NCBI RefSeq assembly: GCF_041296385.1 | Contig: NC_091015.1 | Location: 52,022,345 to 52,086,344, forward strand | DNA: 64,000 bases | DNA from: Aphelocoma coerulescens | Lineage: Eukaryota > Chordata > Aves > Passeriformes > Corvidae | Direction: 5' to 3' | Shown: piece by piece, positions 1,850-64,000 of the stretch | Numbering within the stretch: position 1 is the stretch's first letter | Layout of the letters: every line of letters starts with the position of its first letter | The notes under the pieces: model-generated | What the model was told of the DNA's origin: nothing | The model's database searches: none | The model's input: the letters and a program-made list of their open reading frames with translations, nothing else | Made by a program: the position numbers and the translations under genes

Positions 1850-4800
1850 GTAAGACATTTTACTAATTGCATCCGTTGTATTGGTCTATTTACCATTTCA
1901 ATGACAAATCCTATAGCTTTTATTTTGCAAAGTAGTGATGGGGATTTTTTATGGTACACCTTAAACATGTCTGTGCTGAAATATAAAAGAAAAATATTAA
2001 TGAACAACACATTGGTCAGAATCCTACTGCCATAAATGGTTCTACAAAGGAGTTTGCAGAGATGTGTTAAGACCAGTATGGTTGGTTGCATGGAGCAGCT
2101 CAGCCCAGCTCTGCCGCCCATGGGGGTGTCTGAGTGTTCCCATTACAGGTTGGCTACAAGACAGTGCAGTGGCTGTGTCTTGTCATCTCCAAGAGAAACT
2201 TCACTCCTTTACAGTGGAAACTTTACTCCCTTTTCTGTCTCTGACATTCCAGCTTCCAGCCAGTTGAACCCTTCTGCGACTGGGCCTTCTTGCCCTCTGT
2301 GACAGATCATTTTGTGTTTACAGAATACCACTGCTGAGGAGTTACAATTCTAACTTCCTCTTCAGTGGATGGTAAGAATTAGAATCTCAAAACCACAAAA
2401 GCTGTATAATTAATTTCTGTCTCAGCCATGTGAAATGAATTACTGTGTTTAGCATTCCCTTTTTAACAGAAATGCACTTAAAATAGCAGTATGATTTTGG
2501 GAAACCAGGCTCATTTGCTATAAATTCTACACTGTGAGAGGGGGAGAAACTACTAAATGATAATATGTCAAAATGTTAAACAATGACCTGAGATGAAAAT
2601 TAGAGTTTGATTCTGTGTCCTTTACAATGTTTAGATTTGAACAGAAGAAAATTTCTCCGGGGAACTGTTATCTATGAAATTTTACCTTATGAATGTTTTT
2701 CTGCTCTTACGCATAAATAATTTCCCATGGTATCTCAAAAACTTCTTCATCTGTCATTCCTTGCTAGAACAAAAAGATTTCAAGCTCCCATGTTGTTGGC
2801 TGGTGGTTTTTTGTTTGTTGTTTGTTTGGGGGCTTTTTTTTGTTTGGTTTTTCTGGATCAAAGTTTAAGAATAATAAAAAAGATTTTTTGTAGTGGGCTG
2901 ACCCTGTCTGGATGCCAGGCACTCACCAAAGCCTCTCTATCTTTCCCCTCAACAGCTGGGCAGGGGATAGAAAATATAATGAAGGGTTGATGAGTTGAGA
3001 TAGGGACAGAGAGAGATCACTCATCAAACACTGCCATGGGCAAAACAAACTCTAATTAGAAATATTAATTGAATTTATTACTAACAAAATCAGAGCAGGA
3101 TAATGAAAAGTAAAATTAGACCTTAAAAGCACCTTCCCCCCACCCCTCCCTCCTTCCCAGCTCTACCTTCTCCCCACCAGCAGCCCATGGAGATGGGGAA
3201 TGGGGGTCATGGTCAGTTCATCACGCTTTGTTTCTGCCATTGCTCAGGGAGAGTGTGGGGTCCCACCCATGGGACATAGTTCTTCATGAACTTCTCCAAC
3301 AGGAGATAGGAGTCCATCCCATGAGTAACAGTCTTCTGCAGACTGCTGCAATGTGAGTTCATCCCATGGGCAACAGTCCTCCCCAGACTGCTGCAGCATG
3401 GGTCACTCTTCCATGGGGTGCAGTCCTTCAGGCACAGGGTCACAAGTCTTGCCAGACAACCTGCTCCAGCCTTTCTCCATGGGTCTGCAGGTCCTTGCCA
3501 GGAACCTATTCCAGCATGTGCTTCCCACAGGTTCACAGCCTCCTCTCAGGCATCCACCTGCTCCAGCACGGGGTTCAGCCATAGGCTGCAGTTGGATCTC
3601 TGCATCCCCATGGATCTCCATGGGCTGCAGAGGCACAGCTGCCTCACCATGGTCTTCACCACAGGCTGAAGGGGAATGTCTGCTCTGGTACTTGGAGCAC
3701 CTCCTCCCCCTCCTTCTACGCTAACCTGAAAGTCTGCAGAGTTGTTCCTGTCACATATTTCCACTCTGATTTTCTCTGGCCACAATTAAATCTGCACAAT
3801 AGCTTTTTTCCTTCTTCTTGTTCTTAAATATGTTATCGCAGGGGCATTTCCACCATTTCTAATTGGCCTTGGCCAGTGGCATGTCTCTCTTGGAGCTGGC
3901 TGGCATTGGCTCTGCTGGACATGGAGGAAGCTTCCATCAGCTTCTTACAGAAGCCACCCCTGTAGCCCCCCCCACTGCCAAAACCTGGCCACACAAATGT
4001 TATACCGATCTGCAGGACTGTGTGAATTTTTTAATAAATCATTGGTTTTGTTGTATTGCTAAATAATTCAATGCCTATTGGCTCTTCCTCTCTAGATAAA
4101 TGCAATCCAAGAACCAACTGTGAGGTGCCTTTTTCTCCCCTGGTTCAGATGGATATGGATATCACTTACATCATGGACAGCTCTCGCAGCATTAGCAGTG
4201 AAGAGTTTCAGAGAGCCAAAGACTTTGTGAGCAGCATGTTGGATCAGTTTGTCGTTTCCTCACAGCCAAACGAATCATATGGAGGCATCAGAGTGGCACT
4301 GGTGCAGCAGGCTCCCAGGGGCTTCCTGCCTGACAGAAACCAGACACCTGTGGCCTTGGAGTTTGATCTAGTCACATACAGCAATAAAGATTTGATGAAG
4401 AAACACATCCAAGAGTCTGTTCACCAACTGGAAGGGCCATCAGCCATTGCTTCTGCTCTACAGTGGACAGTTGAAAACGTGTTCTTTAAAGCCCCCAGAC
4501 AAAGAACACACAGGGTCATATTTACAATAGTTGGAAGCAAAACAAGCACATGGGACAGAGAAAGGCTGAGAGAGATTTCACTCGGAGCCAAGTGCCAAGG
4601 ATTCACCTTGTTCACTCTTGCACTTGGCAGAGATGTGAGTGACAATCAGCTGGTGGAGATGTCAAGCTCCCCCACAGACCAGCACTTACTGACAGTGGGC
4701 AGGCTTTCCACACCAGAGATGGTGTATGCTCAGAGGTTTAGCCGGGCATTCCTAAATCTTCTACAACGTAAGTATCACACAGTGGCATTTGCTTAAGTTA

Positions 4801-7800: not shown

Positions 7801-8033
7801 CGATTCTGAGAAGGGTGGACTTTTCTTTCATTAAATCTGTCTCTTATTTCCCTTTTCCAGATGCATGTGACCTTGTTCAAGATAGCGGAGAATGTCAGAA
7901 TTACATTTTGAAGTGGTACTACAACAAAGAGCAGAAAATGTGTGGTCAGTTCTGGTATGGGGGCTGTGGAGGCAATAAAAATAGATTTGAAACACAAGAA
8001 GAATGTGGATTCTTGTGTATAGAGTCTTCCTAG
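1759..8033 (+). CDS. COL6A4: Collagen VI alpha-4-like chain, C-terminal part (gene continues upstream of the window)
   Basis: Six spliced coding exons are visible: 1759-1849, 4096-4767, 5605-5698, 5906-6177, 6635-6652 and 7861-8033. Their phases join without a break (out-phases 1, 1, 2, 1, 1, then TAG at 8031-8033). They encode the end of the first C-terminal VWA domain with its Cys-x-x-Cys turn, a full second C-terminal VWA domain, a charged linker of about 125 residues and a six-cysteine Kunitz domain. Collagen VI chains assemble into beaded extracellular microfibrils. Two C-terminal VWAs followed closely by a Kunitz domain fit the alpha4 chain; alpha3 also ends in a Kunitz domain but has a long linker with a fibronectin type III domain, which is absent here. 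Position upstream of PIK3R4 on the opposite strand also fits the COL6A4/5/6 cluster. The triple helix and N-terminal VWAs lie outside the window. The paralogue name is inferred from domain order and synteny. Confidence 0.85.
1850..2888 (+). other. Intron sequence before the intronic LTR
   Basis: This is spacer between the C1-tail exon and the LTR. Several short open frames occur (for example 2036-2302), but none has splice signals or recognisable similarity. A G/T-rich run lies near 2808-2852. Confidence 0.5.
2889..3995 (-). mobile_element. Solo LTR of an avian endogenous retrovirus, in a collagen VI intron
   Basis: Read on the minus strand, the element starts TGTGTGGCCAGG near 3995 and ends ...CCCACTACA near 2889, so it has TG...CA ends. 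It contains a TATA-like CATATTTAAGAA about 170 nt in, a long stretch of imperfect repeats built on 'CTGCTCCAGC..GGG' (as read on plus), and an AATAAA near its 3' end (plus 3074-3079). I recognise this as a common passerine/Neoaves LTR, but the family name would need a repeat library. No gag, pol or env accompanies it. I did not find a convincing target-site duplication. Short open frames on both strands inside it are chance openings of the repeats. Confidence 0.75.
4096..4767 (+). CDS. COL6A4: COL6A exon: complete second C-terminal VWA domain (C2)
   Basis: The 672-nt exon runs from a ctctctag acceptor to a C|GTAAGT donor, in-phase 1 and out-phase 1. It opens with the inter-domain cysteines (KCNPRTNC) and then the VWA strand DITYIMDSSRSIS, which keeps the MIDAS D-x-S-x-S motif. 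Later hallmarks are the helix with SALQWTVENVF and the KCQGFTLFTLALG strand. The usual second metal-site aspartate (ITDG type) is replaced by the IVGSK region, as is common in collagen VI C2 domains. Potential N-glycosylation sites are NES and NQT. The ATG at 4056 lies in the intron, so it is not a start codon. Confidence 0.92.
5605..5698 (+). CDS. COL6A4: COL6A exon: linker after the C2 VWA domain
   Basis: The acceptor is tttctcacag and the donor AG|GTTGGA. It is 94 nt, in-phase 1 and out-phase 2. It encodes a polar segment around YPSPELQEECENLDRGD that includes one free cysteine. The homologous exon of the decayed paralogue is at 25204-25276 and has the same phases. Confidence 0.8.
5906..6177 (+). 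CDS. COL6A4: COL6A exon: charged linker between C2 VWA and Kunitz domain
   Basis: The acceptor is ccctggaag and the donor G|GTATGA. It is 272 nt, in-phase 2 and out-phase 1. It encodes about 90 residues rich in Glu, Lys, Asn and Met, probably unstructured. It has no fibronectin type III or Lys/Pro-repeat region such as alpha3(VI) carries here. Confidence 0.8.
6635..6652 (+). CDS. COL6A4: COL6A microexon, 18 nt
   Basis: The segment lies between a strong acceptor (tttttcattgcag) and a GTATGG donor. It is exactly 18 nt with phase 1 on both sides, so it adds six residues (core LPLDI) without changing the frame between the linker and Kunitz exons. Skipping would also keep the frame, so it may be alternatively used. 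Confidence 0.6.
7861..8033 (+). CDS. COL6A4: COL6A last coding exon: Kunitz (BPTI) domain and stop
   Basis: The acceptor is ccttttccag. In phase 1 it encodes a single Kunitz domain with all six cysteines in the usual spacing, including the ILKWYYN core and FWYGGCGGN loop, then IESS and TAG. The pattern closely resembles the C5 Kunitz domain of alpha3(VI). The residue after the second cysteine (P1 position) is Gln rather than Lys or Arg, so trypsin-type inhibition is unlikely. The ATG at 7815 lies upstream of the acceptor in the intron. Confidence 0.92.
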
Positions 8034-11780: not shown

Positions 11781-11925
11781 CAGTCAAAAATTTACATACT
11801 GTAGAAGGGGATAGAATTCCTGTAGTGTATATTAAAATGTGATGAGGAAAACTGCCCGAGTTATTCTTACCTTAGGCAAGGCAAGCCCTTTCTACACTAG
11901 TCCCAGCAGCTAGAAGGGACTAACA

Positions 11926-12492: not shown

Positions 12493-12499
12493 CATGCTC

Positions 12500-15606: not shown

Positions 15607-15649
15607 GAACAATGGGGAGGATGGGAGTGATGGCATTAGAGGAGAAGAG
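15607..15649 (+). pseudogene. Relic triple-helix exon 1
   Basis: After a tttattatttcag acceptor the frame reads NNGEDGSDGIRGEE, a Gly-X-Y register like the late part of the collagen VI helix. No GT follows: the sequence after GAA GAG is ATACATT, so the donor appears destroyed. Confidence 0.65.
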
Positions 15650-15735
15650 ATACATTATTGTCTTTCTTTTGCCTTCTTGACCTCAAAGTTACTGAGTGGT
15701 AAAAATGAAATAATGTACTTTATTTTGTCTCTAAG

Positions 15736-15789
15736 AGATCTCTTGGGGTTCCTGGAAAGAAAGGAGAAAAGGGTGACTTTGGATATCAG
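15736..15789 (+). pseudogene. Relic triple-helix exon 2 (54 nt)
   Basis: After ctctaag the frame gives exactly 18 codons, RSLGVPGKKGEKGDFGYQ. Five of the six register glycines are intact and the first is AGA (Arg, one base from GGA). 54 nt is the canonical collagen exon size. The exon is followed by TAACAC rather than GTAACAC, which looks like a one-base loss in the donor and creates a stop. Confidence 0.7.
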
Positions 15790-16214
15790 TAACACTTAGT
15801 CATCTTTTATTGGTCAGGATTTGGATTTAAGAACAACAGTATGGCTATTTCATGAAACTGTCCCTGTGAGAAATGTCTTTAATAAACTCTCAAGCACAAG
15901 GCACAACTTTTTACCATGAAGTTATTTGCACTTCCTTTTGTTTGAATTTCTATCAGAAGAGATATTACAGGACTTAAAATACTTTTTTGCTCTTCTGAAA
16001 AAGGGCAAACTACTGATGAATAGCCAGTGGGTAGTTTTGAAAACAGGATATATATTCAGTAGAAGAGGACAGTGTAGGACAGGGATAAAAACAGACAAGA
16101 TTGTTGCAGTGGACTTTATCAGAAGGTGATTATTAACACGTGTGCAATGCTCTATAATAACTACTTGGTACCTCACTTCCAGATAAAGCTTTCGTACCCT
16201 TTCTGTCCTTACAG

Positions 16215-16240
16215 AGGTGCTGAAGGATACACAGAGCTAT
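16215..16240 (+). pseudogene. Possible relic triple-helix exon (weak)
   Basis: After a gtccttacag acceptor the frame reads GAEGYTEL, two Gly-X-Y triplets in the right place between better-supported remnants. It is too short to be sure. Confidence 0.25.
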
Positions 16241-17398
16241 ATATGTTCCAAATACTGCACAGATAAAACTGCAAGTTTTAGGTATTTATAGCTTGCATGT
16301 AAGTATTGTTAGATATATAAAATTTCTTTTTTCATTTATTTCTGTCATCTTCCACCACCAGGCCTAGTGCTCAGCAAGTCTTTCCCCGTGATTACAGTAG
16401 TAAGTGATTTTTTAGTGTCCATACACAAGATTTTATTTCAAGACCATTACCACTGCATGGTTTCAGGAGTACTGTCTTTGAGTTGTTTTTGCTGTGTTGA
16501 TTGCTAGTTCTTTCTCTGTCTGCAGTGTTCAATGATGAAATCAGACTGAATAGATAGTTCCTCTGGAATCTTCATTGACATCTGTAAATGCAAGGAAGTA
16601 TGATATACATAAGAGGAAGATGTAAAGAAAAAGTTAAACCTTTTCGATACGATGAACTGCTGAACAGCATGGCTTGGTGACACTGTGGGCAGACCTCTGA
16701 ACCCAAAGCTTTCTAGTAACTTGTCATTTGTATATGGAGTAAAGAAGAGTAAGAAGTACTTCATGTTCCCACAGTTTGCTGACTGATATACATTCCCCCA
16801 TAGATGTAGAAAATCTGCCAGAGGCTTGTTCTTGTTGATATCACTGGATATTTTCAATGTTCTGTGCACAGAAATTGCCTTTAATATTTTCTCCAATATT
16901 TTTACTTACACAGAAATTAAGGAGCAATTAGAAGTTTTGTTAAATAAATTGAACTGACAGCTCTTCCATGTTCTCATGGGAAATCAGTGTGCGCTTCAGT
17001 AAACAAGTAGATAAATCACACTTTGGAAGCAGCCCACTTCTGCCACAGACAGTATTACTTGGAGAAAATACACCACAGTCAAAAGGATAGTTGAGGCAGA
17101 TTAAAAAGAGGAGTACTTTCAGTTGTGTGAAACAAGATGTTGCAAGTCTTTTGTTATCTTATGATGCTGCAGCAAAGGAACAGCTGCACCTCATTTTCCT
17201 TTTTTGCAGTAAAAAATTGTTGACTGGTCATTGTGCAAGTTTGATTTGGGGTTTCTATGCAAACCTATGACTAATATTTTGTGTTCCATATCCTTGTGTT
17301 TCAGGGGGAAAATGCTGTCATAATTTCTTGAGAAGCTTGCATTTTTTATCAGAAGAACTTCTTGTCACATTTTAATTGCATTTTTTCCAACTAATTAG

Positions 17399-17443
17399 GG
17401 TAAACCTGGAGACAAGGGACTTGCAGGAGAAACGTGCACTAAA
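17399..17443 (+). pseudogene. Relic triple-helix exon 3
   Basis: After ccaactaattag the frame reads GKPGDKGLAGETCTK. Four register glycines are intact and a Cys (TGC, one base from GGC) stands at the fifth. A stop follows three codons later with no clear donor. Confidence 0.6.
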
Positions 17444-18226
17444 AATATATAGAGGCAGAATGACAAGTACATCATCATTGATATCCTTTAATGGATTTTT
17501 TTTAACAGGTTCCTCCTTTATGTGTGCTGATTGCACATTCGTATTGATTTTTAAATGTTATGTCTGTCATTTGCAAAAGCTGTTAATGCTCTGTCCCTGT
17601 GTAAGTCACACTTAGCAGAAGCAATGACCATCTCTGGATATCCTACTATATGTGTTCCAGTTCACCTTCCTTTTTTGCCTTGGGTAAAAAACTGCTGTAG
17701 AAGAAATTATCTGGTTTAAGAGCAGTGTGATGGTCACTTTCATTCCCCATTAACTTCTTTGTCCTGTTTTTTTCTCGCTTCTTATTCATTTCTCTCTCCT
17801 TTTTCTTCACAAGCTTTTCCACGGCTGAATAGTAACTTCAGATGTTCTCTGCTATGACAGGGGCTGACGAGGGCTGGCTGCTCCCTGCTGAAGCATGTGC
17901 TAATATTATTTTAGGGACTGTATTTTTAAATGGACTTTGAACATATTGAATGAATAACTCAGTTAACAAAAATGAGCTGAACTACTAGAAGAAAATTGGT
18001 GCTTTGATGTTATCCATCCAGGTTGTTCATCTCTTAAAAGTGAAAATGGTGTCAGACCTGATGCTCTTCTTTCTTATTTCTCATTTGCAGTTAATTCAGT
18101 GGAACTTAAGCATGTAGCAAATAAGGGAAGAAGGAAAGAAATCTGTTAATTTCCAATTAAAAAAAAAATCATGACACCTCTGTATGTTGTTTGAATACCA
18201 CATATGTAACATGTAACATTCATAGG

Positions 18227-18307
18227 GCTATTCCAGGACCTGCTGCTCTGCAAGACAGTTGAAGTGACAGGGGATCTCCAGGATGCAGGGCAAGACCAGA
18301 CTCCAAA
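18227..18307 (+). pseudogene. Relic triple-helix exon 4 with mutated glycines and a stop
   Basis: In one frame the first 11 codons read AIPGPAALQDS, then TGA, then SDRGSPGCRARPDSK. Nine successive register positions are Ala, Gly, Ala, Asp, Ser, Gly, Gly, Ala, Asp. Each non-glycine is a single base change from a glycine codon, and the TGA is one base from CGA (Arg). X and Y positions keep collagen-like Pro, Arg and Gln. This is the expected look of a helix exon that has lost selection. Confidence 0.7.
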
Positions 18308-19139
18308 TATTTTCCCATTAGTGGAACCTATGCTTGTTCTTTTTCATTTTTAAGGGAAAATAAGGAATGAAACAAAACGTTTTCTTCCTGTTGTGGTGGT
18401 CTGGAGTGGTAATTTGTGCAATGTCCTGACAACTTCCAATGATGCAAATGGTAAATTGTAATTTACAATATTGTAAATTGCATGATTGTGTTACACTGTG
18501 AACTTCAATATTTTATTAAATAAAGAAGACTGTGAATCCATCTTTATGTAAGCACAAATCAGGTTCTTCTGAATGCAAGTGGGTAATTGTTTACCTATAA
18601 ATGTAATTTTCAGAAGTCACCAGCTAAATGCATGATTTGTGTGTATTTGAAAAGTGTACCTGACTCATACTTAGAACCTTTCCTTTTCACTGATGCAAAG
18701 GATAATGATTACTGTAATTTTTGATTGTCAGTAGCACAGTAAATTTTGCAATTATGTGTTCCTAACAAACCCTTTAGGAGTACCATTGTGGGAATTCAAC
18801 AGTATGTATCTTTAGTCTCAAATGAAAGAGGCTCACTTTAGAAAGGTTTATTTCCTCTTTGACTTTCGCTTTGCAAGTTCAACACAGTATAAAAGACAGA
18901 TTGGGTTCATTTTTCTCTCATTAATTGTTACCATTGCTAAGAAGTCTGCAGCTCTTGCTAAGGTAGTATTTTCCCTGTACATCTTTCTACAGATGATATA
19001 CTGTGAATTTCTTACAGCTTCAAAATAGGTGTAAAGGTGAAATGAATTGCAACAGTCATGTTCAAAAATTTCTGTAAGTACTAGAGGTCTGTCCTCACAA
19101 ACAAAAACCCATATGTTTTCTCAACCTAAATGATTTTAA

Positions 19140-19180
19140 CATATATATGTATACATATATATGTGTATATATATATATAA
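19140..19180. repeat. AT-rich simple repeat
   Basis: Alternating TA with TG/AC interruptions, about 40 nt. Confidence 0.85.
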
Positions 19181-19555
19181 ACAAGAAATTAAAATAACAA
19201 ATAACAGCTAGTGAAACCTTCAGTTCTACTGTAGAATTTCAATATCCCCAAATCATAGTAGACATTAAATAAAATATATAAAAATGTATAATTACAAATG
19301 TGTATAATTAGCTCTTGGCTTTGATTGGTTTTTTTCACCCATGATTAGTAAAATATCTGAGCAGTTGAGAGAGATGAGGAGAACATAACTATAAATTTTT
19401 TCTTTTTTTTTTTTTTAAGGGGAATAAATGACTGAATGGACAAGCCTGATTTTCTGCACATATCTCAAGCAACGTCCATGTTACAAACACAGACAATGCA
19501 CCACCTCCCTAAGTAATCATGTGCTGATGTATGGCTCTTTTGTTCTTGTCCACAG

Positions 19556-19590
19556 CCATGTGAACTCATTACCTACATCTACAAACCCAG
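19556..19590 (+). pseudogene. Relic exon after the triple helix (cysteine segment)
   Basis: It is bounded by a tgtccacag acceptor and a GTATAAG donor and encodes PCELITYIYKP. It resembles the Cys-x-Leu-Ile segment that collagen VI alpha3-like chains carry between helix and C1 VWA. The splice signals look intact, unlike those of the helix remnants. Confidence 0.6.
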
Positions 19591-21949
19591 GTATAAGAAT
19601 TCAATCCTGTTTTGATATTGTAAACCTGAGTAATCACTTGCTTTCTTCCCTGATTTATTAATATCACATTGATTCTGTGTTCAGCACACCTGTGAATTTA
19701 TGGTCTTAGCAGGCAGGTATTTGAAAAATGATGTTAGGGCTGAGTATTTTACTGAAGTTACTGTAGCATAATTTATTAGAAATGTTAAATGTCTTGGTAT
19801 CCAGTGGTCCCAGTTGCCATGAGGTAAGTTTGCATTATTTTTCCTAGTCTATCTCTCTTAATTCCTTAGGAGTTGATTGTGCTAAATACTGTGAGTTCCT
19901 ACAACAAGAAGTATTCTTATTTTTTTAAACTCTGAGAGAAACCTCTAAATGAAAATGTTTAGTGTGGAGTAGGCCCAGGTCCTACTTGTCCTTTTACTCC
20001 GTTCTCCAATAAAACCAAAAGGAATTTAGCAAGCATACATAGCAGTGGAATTCAATAATGCATCTTAAGTCACTGAAAGCTTTATAATCTGTAGAACTGT
20101 GGAAAATAAATTCAGTGTATGTTCCAACAGTGATTTCAGCTTTTTTTTTTGAAAACTCATTGGATGCAACATTTTTCAATTTAACTTTCTTTTCTCTTTT
20201 TTAACTTCCTGGCATGGTAAGTACTTCTTACTCCTATGTTACTGATACTAATGGTACTGTTTATTTGTCAGATTGACCTAGCAGGATCTGACAAGCTGTG
20301 AACTACTTTGCCTGTATAACGGTAGGCCCCACTTAACCAAACATTCTGAGATATGTGTTTCCTTCACAGGGGTAAAATCCTTCATTGAGTCAGGTGTTTA
20401 CTGAGCTGCAGGTTCAGTTTGCTCATCCATGTGTAGGTAGGAGAAAATGAAGTGAAAAACAACATTTTAAACTGGATGTAGTTTCTTCAAATCTTTTATA
20501 TATCACAAATTTCTATTTACAAGAAAGACTATGGGTCTTCTTAGAGGCTTGTATCTTTTTCAGTGATAATTTATTTAACCCCATTGGTAAGGCTATTGCT
20601 GGCAATAATGAAGTAGTACAAGTTCCTCCTTTGTAATTTCCCCCTGTTCTTTATGTTCCTGTGCTTATTATTTTTTATAATTTCTTTCCGCTTATCCGTG
20701 AGAGATACAGCTTGTGTTATCCTTCTCTGACCTTTCATCATTCTAATTGACTTGCAGCTTCAGCACTGCAGATTGTCTTCCTTGTCCCTTCTCTGACCTT
20801 CTTTTCTGTTTAACTTCACTCCCACCAGTTCCTCCACTGCTTCACACTGAGCTGACAAATAATTTTATCACACCTATCATTTAAAACTTTCTCCTCTTTA
20901 TTTGTTCTGATTTCAATACTGCTCTCCTTTGTTTTGCTTTATGGGTTTTTTGTTGTTGTTTTTTTTCCCTAACTATACTCAGTACTTGGTGTGTTCCATG
21001 CCCAAATGTGTCTGATACCAGTTATGTATAGGAAAAGATAATGGAACCCCTGTCCTACACTGAATTTGGCTGGAATGGTGAGTCAGTAATCTCTTCCCTT
21101 CATGAGTGCTAGATAAATGATCTTATTGTTACTGTAGTTATGATGCCTGCTGTAGCCTGTGATTTTTTGAATTACATTTTTCTTCATGATGCAGCACAGT
21201 ATTTTCTTCAACACTATTTCTGCTTATAGATGTAATATAATGGCTGGAGTAATTACAAGATGAAATGTGTTTTACTACAGAAATGTCACATTCATTATAA
21301 AGCCTGAACAGTTCTCTTAGTAATAATGCAGTAATAATAGCATCAAATCAGTATCTGAGCCACACAGCAGTACTTGAATTAGTGTAGGCCTGCACTGTGC
21401 CACAGAGGAGCTTTAAAAGGGAGTATTGTGTGATGAAATTGCAGGGTACAGCTATACACCCCAATGCAGACAGTTACAAGCTCCCTCTGAGCTCAGCAGG
21501 GCAGATCCTTCCTCTGCAGGCACACTCAGCTAGGAGGCACAGGCTGCAGCAGGTTTGCATTACCAGAGGTTGAGTGCAGGTGAATGTGAGCCTGCCAGAA
21601 GTTGGACAAAACCAAGATAATTTCTACCCCTGTTGTTGTCCTGTGCTTAGGTGGTGCTGGAAAAGCACCTTCTTTTCTCTACTGCAGCTTATCCATCTGT
21701 AAATAGTGCTAATATAATTTAGCACTATTTTTCAAATATCTTTGTAAAACATTTTCGCAGAAAAAAGCAATTTTTACTCTTCTGTGCTTCACTTCAGTAT
21801 ACATTGGGCAGATTTTTGTCTAGCTCCCCATGTTTCTCTGTGCTTGTATCCAGTGTGGGATGTAGTTTAGCATTGTGCTATATGGCTTTTGTGTGCATTA
21901 CTCTCTGCATCTGAGATGCAAGAGAACAAAATAATTTGGGGGTGTTTTT

Positions 21950-22405
21950 TGTTTCCTGCTACTCTGTTACCACCGCCTTATCTACTGCTCGGAGTTTCAC
22001 AACAAGAATATGCTACTCAATGCACTGAAAAATATTTCTCACCAGAGATCCTCCAGTGAACAGGACACTGGATGTGTGATGAGATTCATTCCCATTAATG
22101 TTTTCAGGAAAACTCTACAAGGTACTAAAGTGAGAAAAATAGCTGTGATTTACAGCCATGGACCAGCTTCTTCTGTTAAAAGAAGCTGTTATGGAGAGCT
22201 GTTACGGGGATGAGTGCAGTAGAAGTCATTCCAGTAGTTATTATGAAGTGTCCTGTTTTGAGGGACTGCATGAAGAAGGGGTTGGTGTGGAGCTTCTGCT
22301 TCATGAGAAAAACTGCAAAATGCCTCTGCTTGCCTGTTCTGGTGCAGAGCCATCTTCTCACATGTAGATGTTCTGACCTACTTTTACCTATGAGTGAATG
22401 CAGAT
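21950..22405 (+). pseudogene. Relic C1 VWA exon, frameshifted
   Basis: In the frame of 22010 the stretch LIYCSEFHNKNMLLNALKN, continuing ISHQRSS, DTG, NVFRKTLQG and VRKIAVIYSHG, matches the middle of a collagen VI C1 VWA domain. Near 22165-22210 the reading moves through a second frame (LLLKEAVME) into the frame of 22210 (SAVEVIPVVI), a strand that normally continues it. A piece like LLLHEKNCK then reappears in the other frame, and a C-x-C-x-D segment closes the domain. At least two indels are therefore needed. The N-terminal half of the domain, including MIDAS, was not found. Confidence 0.7.
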
Positions 22406-22654
22406 TCACTTTACAAAATGAGTTCTCAGAAAGGAGTAGCACTCTGCCACCTGATGTGCTTTCCTCTTGTGGTCTTAGTTCCCATTCTCTGTCATTTATT
22501 TTAAAGAAAATGGATGGGAGGCTGATAACTGGGCTTCTTCCATCTTGCTTTAGGAGCACAGGGCAGGGAAGATACGCCAGGAGAAGGGACCCTGTAAGGT
22601 AGTGAGACTGACACAGTTCATGCAGTGTTTTCACAAAAGAGAAACCGAAACGGC

Positions 22655-22775
22655 ATGAGCATAGGAAGTCTTTGGAGCTGGAAGACATGGACCAGCTGAG
22701 CAGCCTGGCTACTCAGTTGGATGTTGTCATCCACATTGCAAATCTCTCCTATCCATTGTTGCAAAAGATGCATTA
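22655..22775 (+). pseudogene. Possible trace of the C2 VWA exon
   Basis: The frame encoding LELEDMDQLSSLATQLDVV followed by ANLSYP aligns loosely with the EEFQRAKDFVSSMLDQFVV...NESYG stretch of the intact gene's C2 exon. The DNA also matches in patches around 4225-4285. The rest of the domain was not recognised, so this is tentative. Confidence 0.35.
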
Positions 22776-25203
22776 GTTGTATTGTTAAGTTAGATGGCCT
22801 TTATCACTGATGACTTCAAAATCCTCAAGCCAAAGAACTTCTTCTCTTGCAAAGTTTGAGCTGAAATCAATAGTGTCCATAGAGCAGCTAATGAAAATAC
22901 AAAACCTCTTCTGAGGTGTTTTCTACCTTTTTCTTATATTTTAAGTAATAAAGCTCAAAATTATTAGTAGTCACGTTGCTCTTACCAGGGCATTTTGTAG
23001 AATTACTATAGGTAGACTCTCTTTCTAACGTAAATTGCTACATGCAGTAAGTTCACTAAAATATGGATTATATGTTTTATTATTTTGCTGTTTAGTTTCT
23101 GGAAGGATTTTATACTCCTGTCACATGCTGTAAAAAAAAATGTTAGAAAGGAGTTCATAACTGTAGTGGTTCATTTAATACTGCCAAGTGGCCCTACAGG
23201 GAAATATGATCCGTATATTATAAATGTCCTAGGAAATAATGTAATTTCATTCTAGCTGAAAAAGACCAAATATCATAACATATAGTTGACATTAAAGAAC
23301 ATGTTGTGGAATGAGGGTGTATTTCTATGAAAAAATGTAAAAAAGAATGTCCAATAACTATGAAGTTTGTATTGAGAGTAAACTATTGTTCTGTCTGATT
23401 GGAATGAGTAAAAGGATATATGAAGAAATAATTTTCAGAAGGACACGGAAGGTTTTTACATTAAGAAAATTGAGTTAGTGATTTAGATTCTGTTAATGCT
23501 CACCAAAAATAATATGTGGTCTTGCAGAAGTTATACTAATACTGCTATGTAGGAAAGATTTTAGGAATTTAAAGAGTGTATTCTTCCTTTTTGCCCTATA
23601 TCATAAAGAAAACCACTTGTTTTAACATTTATTAGGTAGTGTTTCTCTAGCACACAGTTGAAACTCATGGAGCAATGTCCAAGATCCTTAGGTTTTCATT
23701 CTGACTGGCATAATTAAATAATATTATCTGGGAAAAAGACTTCCATGTCACGCATAGTCTGTGAAAAGTCTATGTTAGGTACAGTGTAACTCGTGTGAAA
23801 AACCCCAAAGGATAATTGTGTTTCTCATTAAGACTGAATTATTTAGTCCCATTCTGGTGGTTTCTATTGCAGATGAGTTATTTGAAATGGAAACCTCTTC
23901 CTTTTCCTCAAGTGTCATGCTCAGCTTAGAGGTTAACAGGTGAGAGACTGAAGTTGACTGAATATTTCTGTTCTTGTTCATATGCCTCAGGCCTCCTCAT
24001 GAGAGCAAGGCCAGCAGGAGCTGACCTGCCACTTCTTTCACATTCACTAGATTTTACTTATTTCCTAAAGCACTTTTTGTCTTCATCCAAAAAGGTGTGA
24101 CTTTTATTTAAAACCAATGCATTAAAGAAAAAAAAAGTTTTAAAATACCACCACAAAAGATTATGTAATTTGCTAAAGTTTTGTGTACTCTGGCATCCAG
24201 CACAGTTTTAGACTTTGTTCACCTTGCAAAATCACTACAAGGTGCCAGTGGTCACTGCTGCTGCTTCCTCTGTGTCACGTCCTGGGCAGATAGGGAGTTC
24301 ACTGTCTTTCTTTTTCTTGTAAAGATGTGAGGAAGTTCATTTCAAGCTGCGTCTGTTAGAGCAGTGGTGTGAGGGCAGACACAGACAGGGTATGGCAGAA
24401 CTAGTTTGGCTGTTTCAGATCTTTCCATAAGGATAAACAGCAGTTGTCTGGAGACAAAGTTCATTGGCAAGAGTGAAAGTGATCCAAAAAACTGCTACCA
24501 AATGACCTGGAAGCCTCACAGGGGTTCTGTGAGATTCTGGCCATTACATTCCCTGTATATATGATAATGAACTCAAAAATCCTGCCTTTGTTTATTCTAA
24601 AGAGAAGAGTTATTGGAGTAACTCCTGAAAATTGTTCTGTCAGATATTGGGGATCATATGTTTTATCGATCATGTATTTTATATTCATCATATAGCTAAA
24701 GAGGAAGTTCACCCATCATCAGGGTTGTTTAAATACAGAAAATGCAAGTGGAACTGAGTTCAGAATTCATTCTAACACCTAATTTTCTTACTACTATAAA
24801 AATATAAACTTTGCCTGTCAAATGAGAATGAGAACAGTCTTGTGATTGTCTGTATCCTTTACAAAGTGTGTTAAATTGGGAATATAGAACATATTAAAAG
24901 ACATTGAGCAAAAAATCAGAACACCTAAATAAGGAAATAAATAAGTAAGGTATAAATATAATCCTCACATTCATCTAAATGTTTATTTAGATCCTTCATT
25001 TTTTTCATTCAAGTCTTCCTATTGATCAGTGCAGAATCAGACCACCATAGCATTCATATATATATATGTATGGTCTTTGTTATAAGTGTATAAAATCAAC
25101 CCAGTCGCTTAATTTGCTGCTACTCTTGGATAAAGGCCAAAACTTTGCCAAAATCTTCCAAATTCCACAAAACTAATGAATTTTTTTACTGTTTTCTGAA
25201 CAG

Positions 25204-25276
25204 GAGAGGACAAGTACACACCAGAAGAGCCCAAGGAAAAGTGTAATAGACTCCACTTTCAGAATAAAAGAGCTGT
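25204..25276 (+). pseudogene. Relic tail exon, paralogous to 5605-5698
   Basis: It has an intact acceptor (tttctgaacag) and a perfect GTAAGT donor. It is in-phase 1 and out-phase 2, the same as the intact gene's exon after its C2 VWA domain. The product YTPEEPKEKCNRL lines up with YPSPELQEECENL of that exon, including the single cysteine. It has no stop in the required frame. Because its splice sites survive, it could still be included in a transcript. Confidence 0.6.
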
Positions 25277-28200
25277 GTAAGTCCATTAAATAATTATTCG
25301 GACATCAGGGGTTAATAGTGGATGAGATTTGCTCTCAGAGCACTGTCCTTATTGGGTATTTTCAACAAGCTTTTTGTTTGATTGGTAAAATTCTGCTTGA
25401 TTTGCAAAGAGGAAGAGTGGAACTGGACTATAAAAAATACACTAAAAATTGACATCATACCCTGTTTGAAAAGGTCTAAAATGGTTGTGCATAATTAATG
25501 ACATCCCTTGTGTTATTTCTGTGTTTATTCTGAGCTTTACAGTCCCATGAAACTAGTCATTGTGCTCCTCTGAAGATTTCCAAATGCCATAACATTTTAA
25601 TATTAAAGTGCTCCTTTCTTTTGTTGTTGTTGTTACACGAAGGCATAAATACAATGAGAAAAGAGAAGTCAAAACTGAGGAAATCAGTCACTGCTGGCGT
25701 CCAGTTTTGTGATTCCTCCTGCCAAAGGCATCGGTTGATTCTGAAACTGAATCAAAGTGGAAAGGGCTCACTTTCAATGCAGAGATTCACTGCCCACTAG
25801 GACACACACTGGAAAATGCTGCAAAAGGACTGCAGAGCCAGAGTTCTGATCAGCAAAAAAAAAGATGAAGGCATTATGAAACATGAAGTTTCCAAGCCAT
25901 TGTCTTCACAACTAAGAACAGTGTGAAAGTTCCTAACACTTTCCTGGTTCCCATTACTACTGTATAGAAGGATCTCTGTTATGTAGGCAGGCACATTGTC
26001 TTCTTACAGCTACTTGTTAGGGCAGCTTTAGCACAAACCTGGAGAAGAATTTGAATTCTTGCATTAGAAAGAATAGTGGTAATAATAGGCAAAACAAAAG
26101 ATTTTGAAAGCCTGCTCTTGGAGGAAAATAGCTGGACCAGCTGGTTGAGAGTTCTTGTTTCCATTTTCTTGTGTTTAGAAACACCATCTCTTATTTGCAG
26201 TTACCCCGTTTTGAGTTTTCTCTCGCAGCAGTTCACATTACAATGGATCATGGCTGATAATAGCAGTATTATTGACTTGTAAAAATCGACTTTGGTTTTG
26301 CTCCTGTTTCAAGCTGTTCTTTTCATTACTTTTCTCCTTCTCTATTTGCAAGTGAATGATTCGTGTAAACCTCCATCCATTTTCTGAGTGAATCCTCTCT
26401 AAGGGGAACAAAAAGCCTGATGCTTTTCCACTCACCTGCTGTGAGCTAGCCTTTTAAAGTACAAGGTTGTGTTTTGGTTTGTCTCAGCTCCATGCTGTTT
26501 CCAAGACTTAGGTGAATAAAAACTGAACTGCAGAGCAGGTATCAAAATAGTCAATAGCTGCTTAGAGAAAAGGAGTGGATCTTCTTCAAGAAAAAGTCCT
26601 ACAAATCATTCTTAGCTTTTTCTTGAATTGCATTTCCTGAGAATGAGTTTTGGGGTTTGCAATCAAATGTTAAAACATGCTTTGTAACTTTTATTCTGAA
26701 TTCTTTCTAGCTTTCATGCCTTTCCCATGGTGTGAATTCCAACCACAGATACTACATTATAAGAAGAAAATTGCTAGCACCATAAAGAGATGAAATGGCT
26801 TTTCCTTGCAATTTTCTGCTATTCACTGTCCCTTCAGAATGCATCAGCAATGTTTGCTGAAATCATGATCTGATGATGGCTCTTCTAAAAACTTGCAGAA
26901 GAGAAGTCATTTTTAGCAGTTCTGCTATGAAAGAGGAGACCAGAAGGCAGGGATTTCAGGTCCTTCAGACAGAGAGTTGGAGAGATATATCAAATTAATT
27001 GCAGGTGGAGTACATGGATTCTCCAGTTTCCATATCTTTAGTTTTTCTTTTTTTTTCTCATGCATTCTTAAGAGAAGAAAGGGGATTATGTTTTGCTGTT
27101 AGGGACTTCAGTGCTCCACAGGGATGAGAAATATTTTATTCCCATCTATTTCCATCACAGGCTCCTATAGGAGCACTCTTTAAATCTGCAAGCTCGACCA
27201 AGCATGTGAATTGGGAAGAGATTCCCTCAATGAAATATCCGGTATCTTGAAAAAAAAGAGGATGCAGAAGATGGGGAGAAATAACCAAAGAAATAAGTTT
27301 CTGTCTTCATAAGCCTGTGTTTGTGTTTGTTTTGCTTGTTAGGTGTCTGGGAAGGGGAGAAGGAATGTGCTCTCCTTAAAGGGCACTCAGTAACCCGAAG
27401 ACAGGCAGAAGCCATTCATGATTTTACTCTGAAAGTACACTGCATTCCAGAGAGATGTCTGTTTCTCTTCAATGTTTCCAAGAGTTACAGACCAAGGTCA
27501 CTAGAAAGATACTTTGTTTTGAAATTACAGTACCTGTTCCTCATGCTTCAGACAAATAAAATATCTCCATTACTTTCAGAAACCTGAAAATATACTTGAG
27601 CTCTTATGTTAATATGTAGCCTCTATACTGCACAGGTGAGGCTATTGAGAAGCTGCATCCTACCACAGTCCATCTGGTTCTATACTGGTGTTAATTGGTT
27701 TGCAAGGCGCCATGAAGTTTGTGTTTTACTTTTGGTTTTGTTGTTGTTGTTGTTGTTAATAAACTACATTGCAGGGTTTCCATTTATCCTGATGGCTCTG
27801 CTATAACATGTATATCCTTCCTTATTATAATGTTCTGCACAAAAATCATCCACAGGACAATTTCTTTCAGATGAAAGAGAACTGTGAAATAAAAATTAAA
27901 TTTGTCATATTTGTGAGACAGCATGTGTGTATCCCCTTTGCAATTTACAGCCTCGTCTATGTATCACAATATGGAATTGTCCCTCAGAGGTATAGGAATC
28001 TGGAATAGTGAGGATAAAGTGCAAGGAAGAAAGAATATTCTTTGTCTTCCAAGAAAGCTTGTGAAGAGCTGGGCTGTAATGGAGTTCTGGTACAGAAAAG
28101 CAGAAGAGATTTGTAGGGAGACAACACTGTAGTTTTATTTGAGTTATGTAATTTCAAGTCATCATAAAAATGGAAAACGTGTTGACTGCTCAAATGTTGC

Positions 28201-34860: not shown

Positions 34861-36530
34861 TACTGGGCCTTTACCTCCTTGTTAAAAGCTCAATTTTTGA
34901 CTCCATAACATGTTTCCCATTGTTTTGTCTGTGATACCTGCCCACACAATGATTACCTGCCCCAATGAACTGGGCCTCCTTCAGATTTCCTAAGAGTCCA
35001 TCTGAATACCTTGCTCTGTGTTTGCACAGCAACCAGACAAGCCACCCTCTATTATTCCGTGGCATTACAAACCTGGCTATCACCAGTCAAATGCTATCAG
35101 CAGGGAGCCCCATTCCTCGTTTTATTCCCTGCTTCAATCCTGCTTCATTTGGATTGGTTTGTCTTTTTGCTTTCCAGACCTGTCTGAATTTTCTTGTTTT
35201 GACTTAACTCTGCTCCTAAGGATGGTGACAACACCAGCTTGTTGCCCTTGCAGTTAAACTGCCCTTTATCCACTTGAAGGCCTTACCTGGCTCACTCTAT
35301 GCTCTACCTGGACCATGGGAATTTTCCGGCTCACACATTTACCTATGTGGCAAGACTCCTATACCAAAGATAACCTAACAAGTCTGCCTTCCTTGATAAG
35401 CCATGAACTGCTTCTATTTAGTTAAGCATGGTTAGTTTTGCTGTCACAATGTCCTGTATCTTTGTGCAAAATTCCTAAGACAGTTTTGCACTTCAGGCTT
35501 TGGGATTGGTTTAGCCAGCTACTTGAAATGTGTTTTGAACTGTGGTTGAAGCACCAAGCTCTTGAGCTCTAAGATGCTTTTGATGAAATATTGATGAAAT
35601 CTGCTGAGTTTTATCTGCTACTTCTCTAGCTTTGGGAGGGATAACAGGGACTGAACCAATGTTGCTACTCTGAGAAAGATTAAAGACAGGTCCTGAACTA
35701 CTGGGTAAATCAGCAATTCCACTTAAGCCAGAAGCCTTCCTTGTTACAGGAAACAGTAAGTTAGTAGTTGAAAAATCCATGTTACTAATAGAGTAGTATT
35801 CTATAAGATGTAAGAGTTTTTTAAAATATTATTGAATATAATTTTGTTTTCTTTTTCCCCCTTTGCATCTGTCTACAGTGCAGCAGTGCCCCGCATGCAT
35901 GGTTGCCTTTTCCTAACCCTGATCTAAAAGGTGCTCCTGAGTTTAAATAATCCAGCTCTGATTTTAAAAGTTTGGGACTACAGGCAACACCAGAGAAGAC
36001 CTTACTGTCTTCCTGGACTGTGACCCCGCAACTTTTTTCCATGTGATCAGTCTTGGTGCAGTTTTTTGTGGGTCTGTGGGTCAAAATGGTATTGAACATG
36101 AGAGAAAAATGCCTCCTTTTATTAATCCTTGTGGTCTGTGACCCTTTGCTCTTGGTTTAGGTATGCCAGCATGTCCTGTGCCTCCCACTGATGTTTGCCT
36201 TGGACTTTCACTCAGAAGCTACACCTCAAATATTTAAAATAATGAAAGAAATTATAACTCTAGTAGGCAATGTCACCGAACTCAGATACAACAACCTCCC
36301 CGTAGGAGCCAGTCATTGTTGTCTCCTACACCTTGGCTGTCTACAGCCAGGTCTGCTTCTCAGAGTCCTGCAACAGCAATAAACACCTCAAAGGTCATAA
36401 AAACCCCGAACTACCAGAGATCCTCAAGTGGACATAATATTGGCAATGCAGTGAGGACATTGACAGAAACTTTTTCAAGTGAATGATGCAAGGTCCTAAC
36501 AGAAGAAAGAGCTGTGTATTTCAGCCAGAT
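34860..36530. other. Protein-like stretch of unknown origin (possible retroposed or decayed gene)
   Basis: Unlike its flanks, this interval is less AT-rich and has long open frames on both strands. Minus 35511-35780 (89 codons) is Ser/Pro/Val-rich (for example SSSGPVFNLSQSSNIGSVP). Minus 35821-36099 (92 codons) contains CGVTVQEDSKVF. On plus, a stop-free stretch at about 36238-36483 encodes a basic Ser/Pro/Thr-rich segment (RRSQSLLSPTPWLS, NTSKVIKTPNYQRSSS). I recognise no domain and cannot decide the strand. A decayed processed copy of a mRNA, or an unlisted repeat, are both possible. Confidence 0.25.
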
Positions 36531-39500
36531 CCCAACACAAATACAGTATTAAAAACTGCAATCCTGAAGTACTGCAAGTTGGACATTTGTAAGTGTATTT
36601 TTGCAAGTCGTGCCTTTAATCGTCCTGCCTTTTCTTATAAGGTTGTATAAACTCCTGTGTCCTCTGACTCCCTCATAATTTGGATTACTCCCTTGAATTG
36701 CTGGCTGTGCTGAGTCCTGAAGGGATTCAAGGCTCCTCACCAGGGGAGTGTATTTCTGACTTTTACTACATTTGTTTCTCTTTCAACCTTGAGCTATGCA
36801 CCCATGGAGTAATTCCACCTTACTGCTGCTTTCTATTCCATTTAGTATCCATGTATCCATGGTATCAGTGTAAGCTCCTGTGAAAGGCTGTCTAATATCA
36901 GGTGAGAATGCTGTATTTTAAATTAAAATTTATAAACTCTGGGGAATATATTCCTTCTAGATGTGACTGGGTAAACATGGAATTGACCTTAAGATTAAAT
37001 GGGTGCATATTGTGGGGTTTGGATCAGAATTTGTTAGATAAAAATTTGTATACAATAAACCCTCAAATATATGATTCACAAAGATCACCAAATAAGGTTG
37101 AAACTGAGTGGAAGACATAGTATTTTTCTACCAAGACATGCAGAAACCATTTTCTCTAGAACAACTGAACTGTTCCAAGCTGCTACCAGCTCTGGCAGCT
37201 CTAGGACATAGTTTCTAGCTGCACCAGACGAGGTTGAGGCTGGACATAGCAAGGAATTTCTTCACAGAAAGAGTGATTAAACATTGGAATGGGCTGCCCA
37301 GAGAAGTGGTAGAGTCACTTCCCTGAAGGTGTTCAAGAAAAGATTGGACATGGCACTCAGTGCCACGGTCTTGTTGACAAAGTGGTGACTGGTCAAAGGT
37401 TGGACTTGATGATCTCAGAGATATTTTCCAACCTAATTGATTCTGTGGTTCTAGCAGCTCACTTACATAAATTCAATTACATCAGGCATTCAAATCAACA
37501 ATGTCTACACTCACCTAAAATATATTAAAAACCCCCTTCATATTTGATCTAGATATTATTAACAGACTGCCATCTCTTAAGCAAAATGCTTCTGAACTAT
37601 CTATAAACACCAAGAGTAAAAAGAATCAGGAGTCAACTAAGGTGTATTATAACACCAGAGATAGAGGAGCTACTGAAACTGTAACTGCTGTGCTGCTTGA
37701 AAATACTGACATTTCTTAAGGCTGGAGCAAAGCTCATTTCCCTACAAGTGGTCCCACTGAAGCCCAACGAGATTTCTTGTAAAAATTGACATCCTTATTT
37801 TTTAACTCCACAACATTACTATATATGGGCAAAAGCCTCACTCAGACATAGTTTACTGGTTATGATGGTTCATTGCTTTTCCTGGTTTATGACCTTTTAA
37901 ATGATCACTAGAAATCATTTTAACATTGTGGAGATAAGGTTATATTGCAAATTCTTTTTAATACTCTACACACCATTCAAGAGGCCTGTGTTTCATACTA
38001 CTTAAAATGTCTTCTAAGCTTCATATGGTGTCAGTGGATTATAACACCTGAAAATGAAACCTGATCTGCTTCTTTCATCAAACTATTTTGTCAATGGACA
38101 AAACCATTAACCAAGCAATGCAGCCAAAGAGGTGGTTCCCTTCACCATGTGTATAAGGACCTGTTCAGAGCTGCACACCAAATGGATACAGCAGCAGAAC
38201 AAGCTTGACTTACCACCCTCTTCCTTGCTACTCTGCGATATAAGTGAACTGAGAAAACCTTCCTTATTCCCGAATTCATACAACATAAAGGGACAGCACC
38301 AGCTCCTCTATACAAAGCAAAGAAAAAACTTTTTCCAGCATAACAGTGAGCAGAAATTACAAGGTCTGCAAAGAAATGTCACACTGTTCTTGAGCTCACT
38401 TCCTCTTCTGAACTTGTTACACTTCGGGCAATGTCTACCTACTACACTAAATTATCCAAGTAATGCACTCTCTAATGAAAAGCAGGCAGAGTCTTTTTCC
38501 ACTGAATTCTGAGAGTTTTTAAACAAGTCATTATTTCATGTGTTGTCTCTTCAAAGAACCCAGTTCACAAGTTAAGAGCATTCCCTGCTTCCATCAGAAA
38601 CTCTGTAGAGAAGTAGGCTTCCATTTTTTCTCCAGCTACACTCAAGAAACACCTATCAAATTAGTGCTGTTTGTTGTCAGTGGCCTTCTGAGTCCATCCA
38701 TGCAGATGGGGTCAATCACCTGTTTTAGGGGGAAAAGTAGTCTGGAAATGCAGGTTAGTAAAGTTAAAGTCTGAAAAAGATTTGGGTATATGAAAAACTG
38801 GATCAGAGAGAGTGGTGGGAGAGTGGTGAGAACATTTACTGCCCCTGTCGGACATTCAGGACTTCCTCTCACATGAACATTCCATGACGAAAAGTACTTC
38901 CTGCTGAAAGCCATATTTTGTCTCTATTTGATATCCATACTGAATGACAGAGAACATCATCCTGGTGGTGAGGTTAGCCTTAGACTCAAGTTTAAAGCAA
39001 GCTGGATGCAAAGCACAGTTGAGGATTGACACAAGGCTAAGCTGATCTCAAATGACAAGGAACAGCCCAATGGCTCTGGCAGCTGAGACTGCGGAATCAC
39101 TGCAGAGGAACCACGGATGTAAAGAAACCCAAGCACCAAACAGGGAAGCTCAAGTGGACTTTATTATAGTTATTAGAATGTACAGGGACATTAGTGCACT
39201 GGTTCTTATTTAATTTCTCAGATTCAACACAGGAGCAGCTAGACACCAGCTCTTTGCTTTGTGCACATTTAGAATGTGTCATTTGGGATGTCCTTAAATA
39301 ATTTCCTGAAAGATTCTTGAAGAACAATGCAGTCAAAACCAGGCTAAGTGATTTCTTCATAGATTCCTTGGTATCTCAAGGAAATGCTATGGATATGAAA
39401 AAGCTTTAATATAAGAAGTGATTAGGAAGTGCCAACAGGGTGGTAGGATACAGGTAACTGATTTTATCATCACTTCTATAGTTTTTAAAGTCCATTCCAT

Positions 39501-39554: not shown

Positions 39555-39588
39555 ACAAATATTTACATACCATATATTAATACAACTT

Positions 39589-64000
<24,412 letters not shown>

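What the first reader, a model, noticed from the sequence alone, without database searches (positions are those of the whole stretch)
15607..25276. A dead collagen VI paralogue lies between the intact COL6A4-like gene and PIK3R4
Collinear remnants of helix exons, post-helix exon, C1 VWA, a C2 trace and a tail exon are present with clear decay (mutated glycines, a stop, frameshifts, lost donors). At this position other vertebrates have COL6A6. Lineage-specific loss of a collagen VI chain would matter for interpreting avian muscle and skin matrix and for the alpha3-like chain family.
Basis: partly seen in the sequence, partly recalled or inferred. Interest (0 to 1): 0.75.

Follow-up and report, generated by a model that had tools for sequence, protein, structure and literature searches.

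The report
Two dead collagen VI genes
Between a working collagen VI gene and PIK3R4, this songbird-like genome keeps the wreckage of one collagen VI gene that pigeons, shorebirds and ostriches still appear to have, and of a second, much older one.

Summary
The core observation holds. At 15107-25277 (+) lie eight collinear pieces of a collagen VI alpha3-like gene (psiA): five helix exons, post-helix exon, C1 VWA, tail exon, with two in-frame stops, frameshifts, lost glycines and lost donors. The claimed C2 trace was not found above a reversed-sequence control. psiA's C1 groups with a suboscine fragment (98/87) inside the avian 'COL6A6' clade, on a branch 3-5 times those of five Neoaves rows. 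Long predicted orthologues exist in pigeons, shorebirds, herons, ibis, pelican, cuckoo-roller, mousebird, ostrich and rhea, so the loss is not bird-wide; no passerine is among the 120 rows listed. The name COL6A6 does not follow from position: mammalian A5 and A6 group together, apart from sauropsid copies. In passing, predicted COL6A4 of Neoaves lacks much or all of the N-terminal VWA array. An intact copy elsewhere could not be tested. Ordinary in kind, moderately interesting in pattern.

The parts
4096..4767 (+). C2 VWA exon of the COL6A4-like gene, intact (acceptor AG before 4096, donor GTAAGT after 4767)
   Evidence: Pfam PF00092 82 bits; 74-95% identical to the bird COL6A4-type rows that cover most of it; splice sites read
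7861..8033 (+). Terminal Kunitz exon of the COL6A4-like gene with stop TAG; end of the intact neighbour
   Evidence: Pfam PF00014 69 bits
15107..15172 (+). psiA helix exon: stop TAA at 15149, Gly to Glu and Gly to Val
   Evidence: 77% to P0180 E 3e-5, P0179 E 1e-6; sequence
15607..15649 (+). psiA helix exon (NNGEDGSDGIRGEE) with acceptor AG, apparent 2-base deletion at its start, donor GT apparently changed to AT
   Evidence: 92.9% to P0185 in the exon; with the adjoining intron 76.7% to pigeon P0001, E 7e-21; sequence
15736..15789 (+). psiA helix exon (GVPGKKGEKGDFGYQ), first Gly apparently changed to Arg, donor lost
   Evidence: 86.7% to P0130, 72.7% to P0184; sequence; profile score at control level
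17399..17462 (+). psiA helix exon (GKPGDKGLAGE then frame change ALKIYRGRM), frameshifted
   Evidence: 65.6% to P0196 over 17430-17525, which includes adjoining intron, E 4e-7; sequence
18226..18289 (+). psiA helix exon (IPGPAALQDS*SDRGSPGCR): TGA at 18260, Gly changes
   Evidence: 70% to P0200/P0204, E 0.02; weak alone, collinear
19556..19591 (+). psiA post-helix exon (PCELITYIYK)
   Evidence: 51% to P0198 over 19517-19612 E 4e-5; flanking intron 73% to P0179 at 19630-19728 E 2e-8
21952..22242 (+). psiA C1 VWA, first ~50 codons and the acceptor deleted, frameshifts before 21971 and after 22186
   Evidence: 70.7% to P0180/P0185/P0186, E 3e-24; HMM 88.4 bits; tree
25204..25277 (+). psiA C-terminal tail exon (GEDKYTPEEPKEKCNRLHFQNKRAV, stop TAA at 25278)
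   Evidence: 59% to P0023, 52% to P0200, E 2e-3 to 6e-3; profile 3.8 bits
30952..31067 (+). psiB: end of an N-terminal VWA domain (EEISGKPKLLFF / frameshift / F*MKNFDILKTIEDDFVLAITPPE), stop TGA at 30999; tentative
   Evidence: 45-56% to crocodile, tuatara, lizard and mammal A6-type proteins, linked E 1e-4 to 5e-3; HMM only 1.6 bits, within the control
36160..36608 (+). psiB: C1 VWA (CPVPPT, frameshift, LMFALDFHSEATPQIF..NLPVGA, frameshift, VIVVSYTLAV..), stops TAA 36435 and TGA 36480
   Evidence: 51% over 41 aa E 6e-7, 33% over 100 aa, linked E 1e-12; HMM 24.3 and 17.5 bits with the reptile profile, control at most 1.8
39574..61600 (-). PIK3R4 (VPS15), tail to tail with psiB; C-terminal coding end near 39574, first coding exon inside 60222-61598
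   Evidence: 5 PDB sequences of PIK3R4, E 7e-53 to 1e-51; first exon recognised from its opening residues by recall on the ORF

Best explanation
The stretch holds two unprocessed, unitary collagen VI pseudogenes of the A5/A6 class, both on + between the functional COL6A4-like gene and PIK3R4. psiA (15.1-25.3 kb) is the passerine remnant of the gene annotated COL6A6 in other birds: N-terminal VWA exons, most helix exons and C2 are gone or unrecognisable, and the rest carries stops, frameshifts and lost donors. psiB (about 31-36.6 kb) is a second paralogue that died much earlier. Neither can make a chain able to join alpha1(VI)-alpha2(VI). Likely course (inferred): alpha3-like chains are interchangeable partners of alpha1-alpha2, so loss was tolerated once alpha3 and alpha4 covered the need; the copies then decayed neutrally by point changes and deletions. 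Shown: homology, order, lesions, long predicted orthologues in other birds, fast branch. Inferred: cause, timing, absence of an intact copy elsewhere; that psiB too is unprocessed is inferred from its position and order.
For: Collinear hits with E down to 3e-24; stops read directly; simulated controls at most 1.8 bits against 88.4, 24.3 and 17.5. Intron-homologous stretches shared with pigeon, pelican and shorebird gene models at the same points show that psiA is a non-processed orthologue. C1 tree: psiA with Pitangus 98/87, inside birds 100/99, end branch 0.18 against 0.036-0.060 in five Neoaves rows; psiB outside the bird COL6A6 clade, branch 2.12. 27 long bird rows form one clade. The window's COL6A4 exons are 89-92% identical to oscines.
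Against: No C2 remnant found. Several short psiA pieces score at control level by profile. psiB's N-terminal scrap is weak by profile (1.6 bits, control 1.8), and psiB's exact orthology is unresolved. Rhea's intact-looking copy has an end branch (0.18) as long as psiA's, so the branch alone proves nothing. Only protein predictions of other birds were available, not their DNA. No transcription data. The genome-wide search for an intact copy never ran. Absence of passerine copies rests on the 120 best of 1394 rows of one search limited to proteins of about 1406-4474 aa.
Confidence: 0.88

Rival explanations
1. One dead gene only: the 31-36.6 kb pieces are a stray partial duplicate of psiA rather than a separate ancestral gene.
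For: psiB's second C1 piece scores best with a bird protein (87, next Sphenodon 77).
Against: The other four of five pieces score best against non-bird proteins, the C1 tree puts psiB outside the bird COL6A6 clade, and its order N-VWA then C1 beside PIK3R4 matches a separate gene. A recent duplicate would resemble psiA and its kin, yet the best identity of the C1 row is only 41%, to a turtle.
Confidence: 0.12
2. A living, fast-changing or short gene: the exons are still used, for example spliced to the COL6A4-like gene as an alternative tail, as some database models suggest (Columba P0001, Pitangus P0023).
For: P0001 and P0023 join COL6A4 exons to exons of the psiA orthologue.
Against: Stops inside two exons, lost donors, frameshifts, a deleted C1 acceptor. 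P0001 reads through intron sequence and P0023 reads a helix exon in what looks like a wrong frame, so both look like automatic-annotation chimeras.
Confidence: 0.04
3. The gene is not lost but moved: an intact COL6A6 orthologue lies elsewhere in this genome and the locus copy is a relic.
For: Not excluded, since the whole genome could not be searched.
Against: No passerine protein is among the 120 best rows of the search with the pigeon orthologue, where one would be expected near the 67-90% identity of the other birds.
Confidence: 0.05

Closest known systems
Avian COL6A6 as annotated (for example P0180 Alca torda, P0182 Pluvialis apricaria, P0188 Struthio)
   Same: psiA pieces match it at about 51-93% and share intron sequence with some of its gene models; same clade 100/99
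   Different: psiA lacks recognisable N-terminal VWA exons, most helix exons and C2, and is disrupted
The broken human COL6A4 (COL6A4P1/COL6A4P2; names recalled)
   Same: An alpha3-like collagen VI chain lost in one lineage, leaving non-processed pseudogenes (stated in PMC6934817, passages seen)
   Different: There a chromosome inversion split the gene; here point lesions and deletions, and a different chain
Mammalian COL6A5 and COL6A6
   Same: Same class, and the mammalian gene order A4-A5-A6-PIK3R4 (recalled) fits two slots between A4 and PIK3R4
   Different: In 3 of 3 thirds of the alignment mammal A5+A6 form one clade apart from sauropsid genes, so one-to-one names do not transfer; gene conversion is an alternative reading
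Second alligator paralogue (P0224) and turtle/squamate extra copies
   Same: Candidate intact counterparts of psiB
   Different: psiB is too decayed to be assigned to one of them

Membership tests
Collagen VI alpha3-like chains, A5/A6 class (psiA) | Gly-X-Y helix exons | tested here: met
   Five exon remnants with Gly-X-Y frames matching orthologues; the scan for long Gly-X-Y runs found none here
Collagen VI alpha3-like chains, A5/A6 class (psiA) | C1 VWA after the helix | tested here: met
   70.7%, E 3e-24, partial domain
Collagen VI alpha3-like chains, A5/A6 class (psiA) | C2 VWA | tested here: not met
   No hit above reversed control in 22260-25150; expected in a decayed copy, so it counts against function, not descent
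Collagen VI alpha3-like chains, A5/A6 class (psiA) | N-terminal VWA array | tested here: not met
   No acceptable collagen VI VWA hit in 8050-15050
Collagen VI alpha3-like chains, A5/A6 class (psiA) | Groups with avian COL6A6 and not with A4 | tested here: met
   Tree 100/99; score 247 against bird COL6A6, 139 against A4
Collagen VI alpha3-like chains, A5/A6 class (psiB) | C1 VWA of the A5/A6 class rather than A4 | tested here: met
   HMM 24.3 and 17.5 bits; A4 is the lowest-scoring group for the two C1 pieces; tree, on a very long branch
Collagen VI alpha3-like chains, A5/A6 class (psiB) | Other domains: N-terminal VWAs, helix, C2 | tested here: inconclusive
   One weak N-terminal scrap; no accepted helix or C2 piece
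Unitary (unprocessed) pseudogene | Disabling changes in coding exons | tested here: met
   psiA stops 15149 and 18260, frameshifts, lost donors; psiB stops 30999, 36435, 36480 and frameshifts
Unitary (unprocessed) pseudogene | Introns kept, same genomic slot as functional orthologue | tested here: met
   Intron sequence between psiA exons matches read-through models of pigeon, pelican, shorebirds; slot inferred from A4 and COL6A6 rows sharing contig length in Alca, Pluvialis, Leptosomus, Numenius and Rhea. Not tested for psiB
Unitary (unprocessed) pseudogene | No functional copy elsewhere in the genome | tested here: inconclusive
   The genome search 'own' unanswered in 9 of 9 requests; no passerine row among the 120 listed
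COL6A6 proper (mammalian orthology) | Clusters with mammalian A6 rather than A5 | tested here: not met
   Mammal A5+A6 monophyletic, sauropsid genes a separate clade in 3 of 3 segments

The most novel reading that the evidence does not exclude
In passerines the whole alpha4-alpha6 collagen VI locus has collapsed from three chains of about 2,200-2,550 residues to one short alpha4 chain (signal peptide, N1, helix, C1, C2, Kunitz), with both A5/A6-class genes dead and the N-terminal VWA array of COL6A4 eroded through Neoaves. If so, these birds assemble alpha1-alpha2-alpha4 collagen VI with almost no N-terminal arm.
Probability: 0.45. Interest if true: 0.58.

Novelty: new member of a known kind. 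Interest (0 to 1): 0.42.

Why it matters
Collagen VI alpha3-like chains are tissue-restricted partners in muscle, skin and other matrix. A clade that has lost both A5/A6-class chains, beside relatives such as pigeons, shorebirds and ostrich that appear to keep one, is a natural knock-out series for what these chains do. It also warns that some bird records called COL6A6 are COL6A4 or fusions of the two, and that A5/A6 names should not be carried from mammals to reptiles and birds.

Tried and rejected
C2 trace of psiA: searched in 22260-25150 with all 274 proteins held; best 24.3 bits against 25.0 in the reversed control, rejected. Further pieces, same call, one reversed control per region: 8050-15050, two hits exceed the control (28.9 bits), namely 61.2 bits at 8076-8174 to Mimus P0012, an A4 model reading on past the stop, and 29.3 bits at 9993-10226 to an odd N-terminus (Fukomys P0162) inside the retroelement-like ORF; Vidua P0009 at 14988-15038 (28.5) is a flanking read of an A4 model. 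25300-30900: best 27.3 against 25.4. 31100-36050: best two 27.7 against 24.3, one of them an N-terminal VWA of a mammalian A6 (P0239) at 31937-32071, E 0.015. 36720-39560: best 28.5 against 26.9, to an A4 N-terminal domain. These exceed single controls by 1.6-3.4 bits at E 0.004-0.036; I did not accept them, and the P0239 hit, which would be collinear with psiB, stays open. A first version of this test returned no hits because of an invalid option and was rerun.

A Gly-X-Y scan at 6 of 8 triplets found no helix remnant because the exons are too short and damaged. Assigning psiB to one reptile paralogue was tried by pairwise scores and by tree and is not resolved. Naming psiA A5 by position was rejected by the segment trees.

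Papers: 10 of 10 searches used. In these listings I saw no paper on loss of COL6A5/COL6A6 in birds; four searches returned nothing. Only PMC6934817 was opened, as passages. This covers open-licence PMC papers only.

Full report
Setting. The window is bird DNA. Its COL6A4-like exons (C2 VWA 4096-4767, two tail exons, Kunitz 7861-8033) are 89-92% identical to the oscine rows P0009-P0013 and P0015 (P0009 over 369 and P0012 over 391 aligned positions, the others over 400) and at most 86.3% to the other bird rows. It is probably an oscine passerine. The Kunitz and C2 exons are sound. PIK3R4 occupies the minus strand, its coding end near 39574. The dead genes lie between.

The observation. All 274 proteins gathered were compared with the window by tblastn, and profiles of 13 bird, 19 reptile and 42 mixed A5/A6-class proteins were run against six-frame translations. 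psiA shows eight collinear pieces from 15107 to 25277. The strongest are C1 (70.7%, E 3e-24; 88.4 bits) and 15608-15787 (76.7% to pigeon P0001, E 7e-21, part of it intron). The weakest are 18230-18289 (E 0.02) and the tail exon (E 2e-3 to 6e-3). Ten Markov-simulated 52-kb sequences gave at most 1.8 bits; the first two helix exons together reach 13.9, but the other short pieces score -1.6 to 3.8 and are not significant alone. Stops read from the sequence: TAA 15149, TGA 18260. By comparison with orthologous proteins: frameshifts at 15607, in the 17399 exon and on both sides of the C1 core, donors lost after 15649 and 15789, glycines replaced in three exons, and the first fifty or so codons of C1 with their acceptor missing. 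The C2 trace was not found.

Unprocessed and orthologous. Stretches between psiA exons match places where pigeon, pelican and shorebird gene models read into introns (for example 19630-19728, 73% to P0179, E 2e-8; 21886-21954, 83% to P0189, E 5e-6). This shows an unprocessed gene. In a tree of the C1 domain (43 of 44 rows used, one left out for lack of columns) psiA joins the fragment from the suboscine Pitangus (98/87) inside the bird clade (100/99). Its end branch is 0.18 (Pitangus 0.19), against 0.036-0.060 in Alca, Pluvialis, Patagioenas, Colius and Theristicus, and 0.061 and 0.18 in ostrich and rhea. Rhea's long branch shows that length alone does not prove death; the lesions do.

Who still has it. 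Of the 120 rows listed (of 1394 found), 27 are birds, 1675-2589 residues long, and these form one clade: 2 pigeons, 16 Charadriiformes, 4 Pelecaniformes, Leptosomus, Colius, 2 ostrich and 1 rhea (orders by recall). Many are marked partial; P0179 and P0181 are flagged low quality; P0001 is a fusion. No passerine, owl, parrot, hawk, fowl or duck is listed, though the COL6A4 search lists passerines, owls, fowl and ducks. The search admits only proteins of about 1406-4474 residues, so short models are invisible.

The second wreck. At 36160-36608 lies another C1 VWA in three frames with two stops (two pieces of 24.3 and 17.5 bits with the reptile profile, linked E about 1e-12 by tblastn), and at 30952-31067 a scrap of an N-terminal VWA. 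The scrap is significant in linked tblastn but not by profile (1.6 bits; control 1.8). It is not psiA's: psiA has its own C1, and psiB's pieces lie beyond psiA's tail. In the C1 tree psiB falls with crocodile, turtle and bird rows (87/95) but outside the bird COL6A6 clade, on a branch of 2.12; such a long branch is not safely placed. Four of five pieces score best against non-bird proteins, one against a bird. None of the 27 listed bird rows falls outside the psiA-type clade, so none is a candidate intact psiB.

Names. In the full-length tree (48 rows) and in trees of three thirds of an alignment of 36 rows, mammalian A5 and A6 are together and sauropsid genes are together (supports 94-99 in the thirds). 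In the first third mammalian A5 and A6 are not separately monophyletic. Either the duplications were separate or gene conversion homogenised the copies. The grouping of birds and crocodile copy 1 held in 3 of 3 thirds; adding the squamate copies held in 2 of 3 (one at 57).

A wider pattern, outside the window. Of 49 COL6A4-type rows compared with the guineafowl protein at 60% identity or more, 24 are Neoaves; these cover 0-962 of its 1380 N-terminal residues. Four of the 24 (P0001, P0009, P0010, P0023) are incomplete models also in the rest. Fourteen cover all 1155 residues from N1 to the end but at most 242 of the N-terminal ones. The 13 palaeognath and Galloanserae rows (one unnamed, P0019) cover 1159-1380; the other 12 rows are reptiles and amphibians. 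Several Neoaves models start with the signal peptide followed at once by N1. The four best-covered Neoaves rows are flagged low quality by their source, as expected of eroding exons. These are predictions and were not checked on DNA.

Mechanism. Collagen VI monomers are alpha1-alpha2-alphaX, with alphaX being alpha3, alpha4, alpha5 or alpha6 (PMC6934817, passages seen). Redundancy of X makes loss tolerable; the rest is neutral decay. This step is inference.

Limits. No DNA of other birds, no RNA, no whole-genome search (nine unanswered requests).

Noticed in passing
proteins P0001-P0038, outside the window: Predicted COL6A4-type proteins of 24 of 24 Neoaves rows (4 of them incomplete models) cover only 0-962 of 1380 N-terminal residues, 14 of them with the rest complete; 13 palaeognath and Galloanserae rows cover 1159-1380.
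   Followed up: partly
P0001 (Columba guinea Col6a6) and P0023 (Pitangus): Database models that fuse the COL6A4 C-terminus with exons of the psiA orthologue, one of them reading through introns; likely annotation chimeras.
   Followed up: partly
tree and segments: Mammalian COL6A5 and COL6A6 group together apart from the sauropsid A5/A6-class genes tested, implying separate duplications or gene conversion.
   Followed up: partly
window 9912-10550 (+): Reverse-transcriptase-like fragment of a retroelement (PF00078, 20.1 bits, below the Pfam cut-off) between the COL6A4 end and psiA.
   Followed up: no
P0062, P0160, P0169 (Elgaria): A lizard with three A5/A6-class proteins on contigs of the same length, so copy number in this locus may vary among sauropsids.
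   Followed up: no
window 31937-32071 (+): Weak match (27.7 bits, E 0.015; reversed control 24.3) to an N-terminal VWA of a mammalian A6, in the right order to belong to psiB.
   Followed up: no
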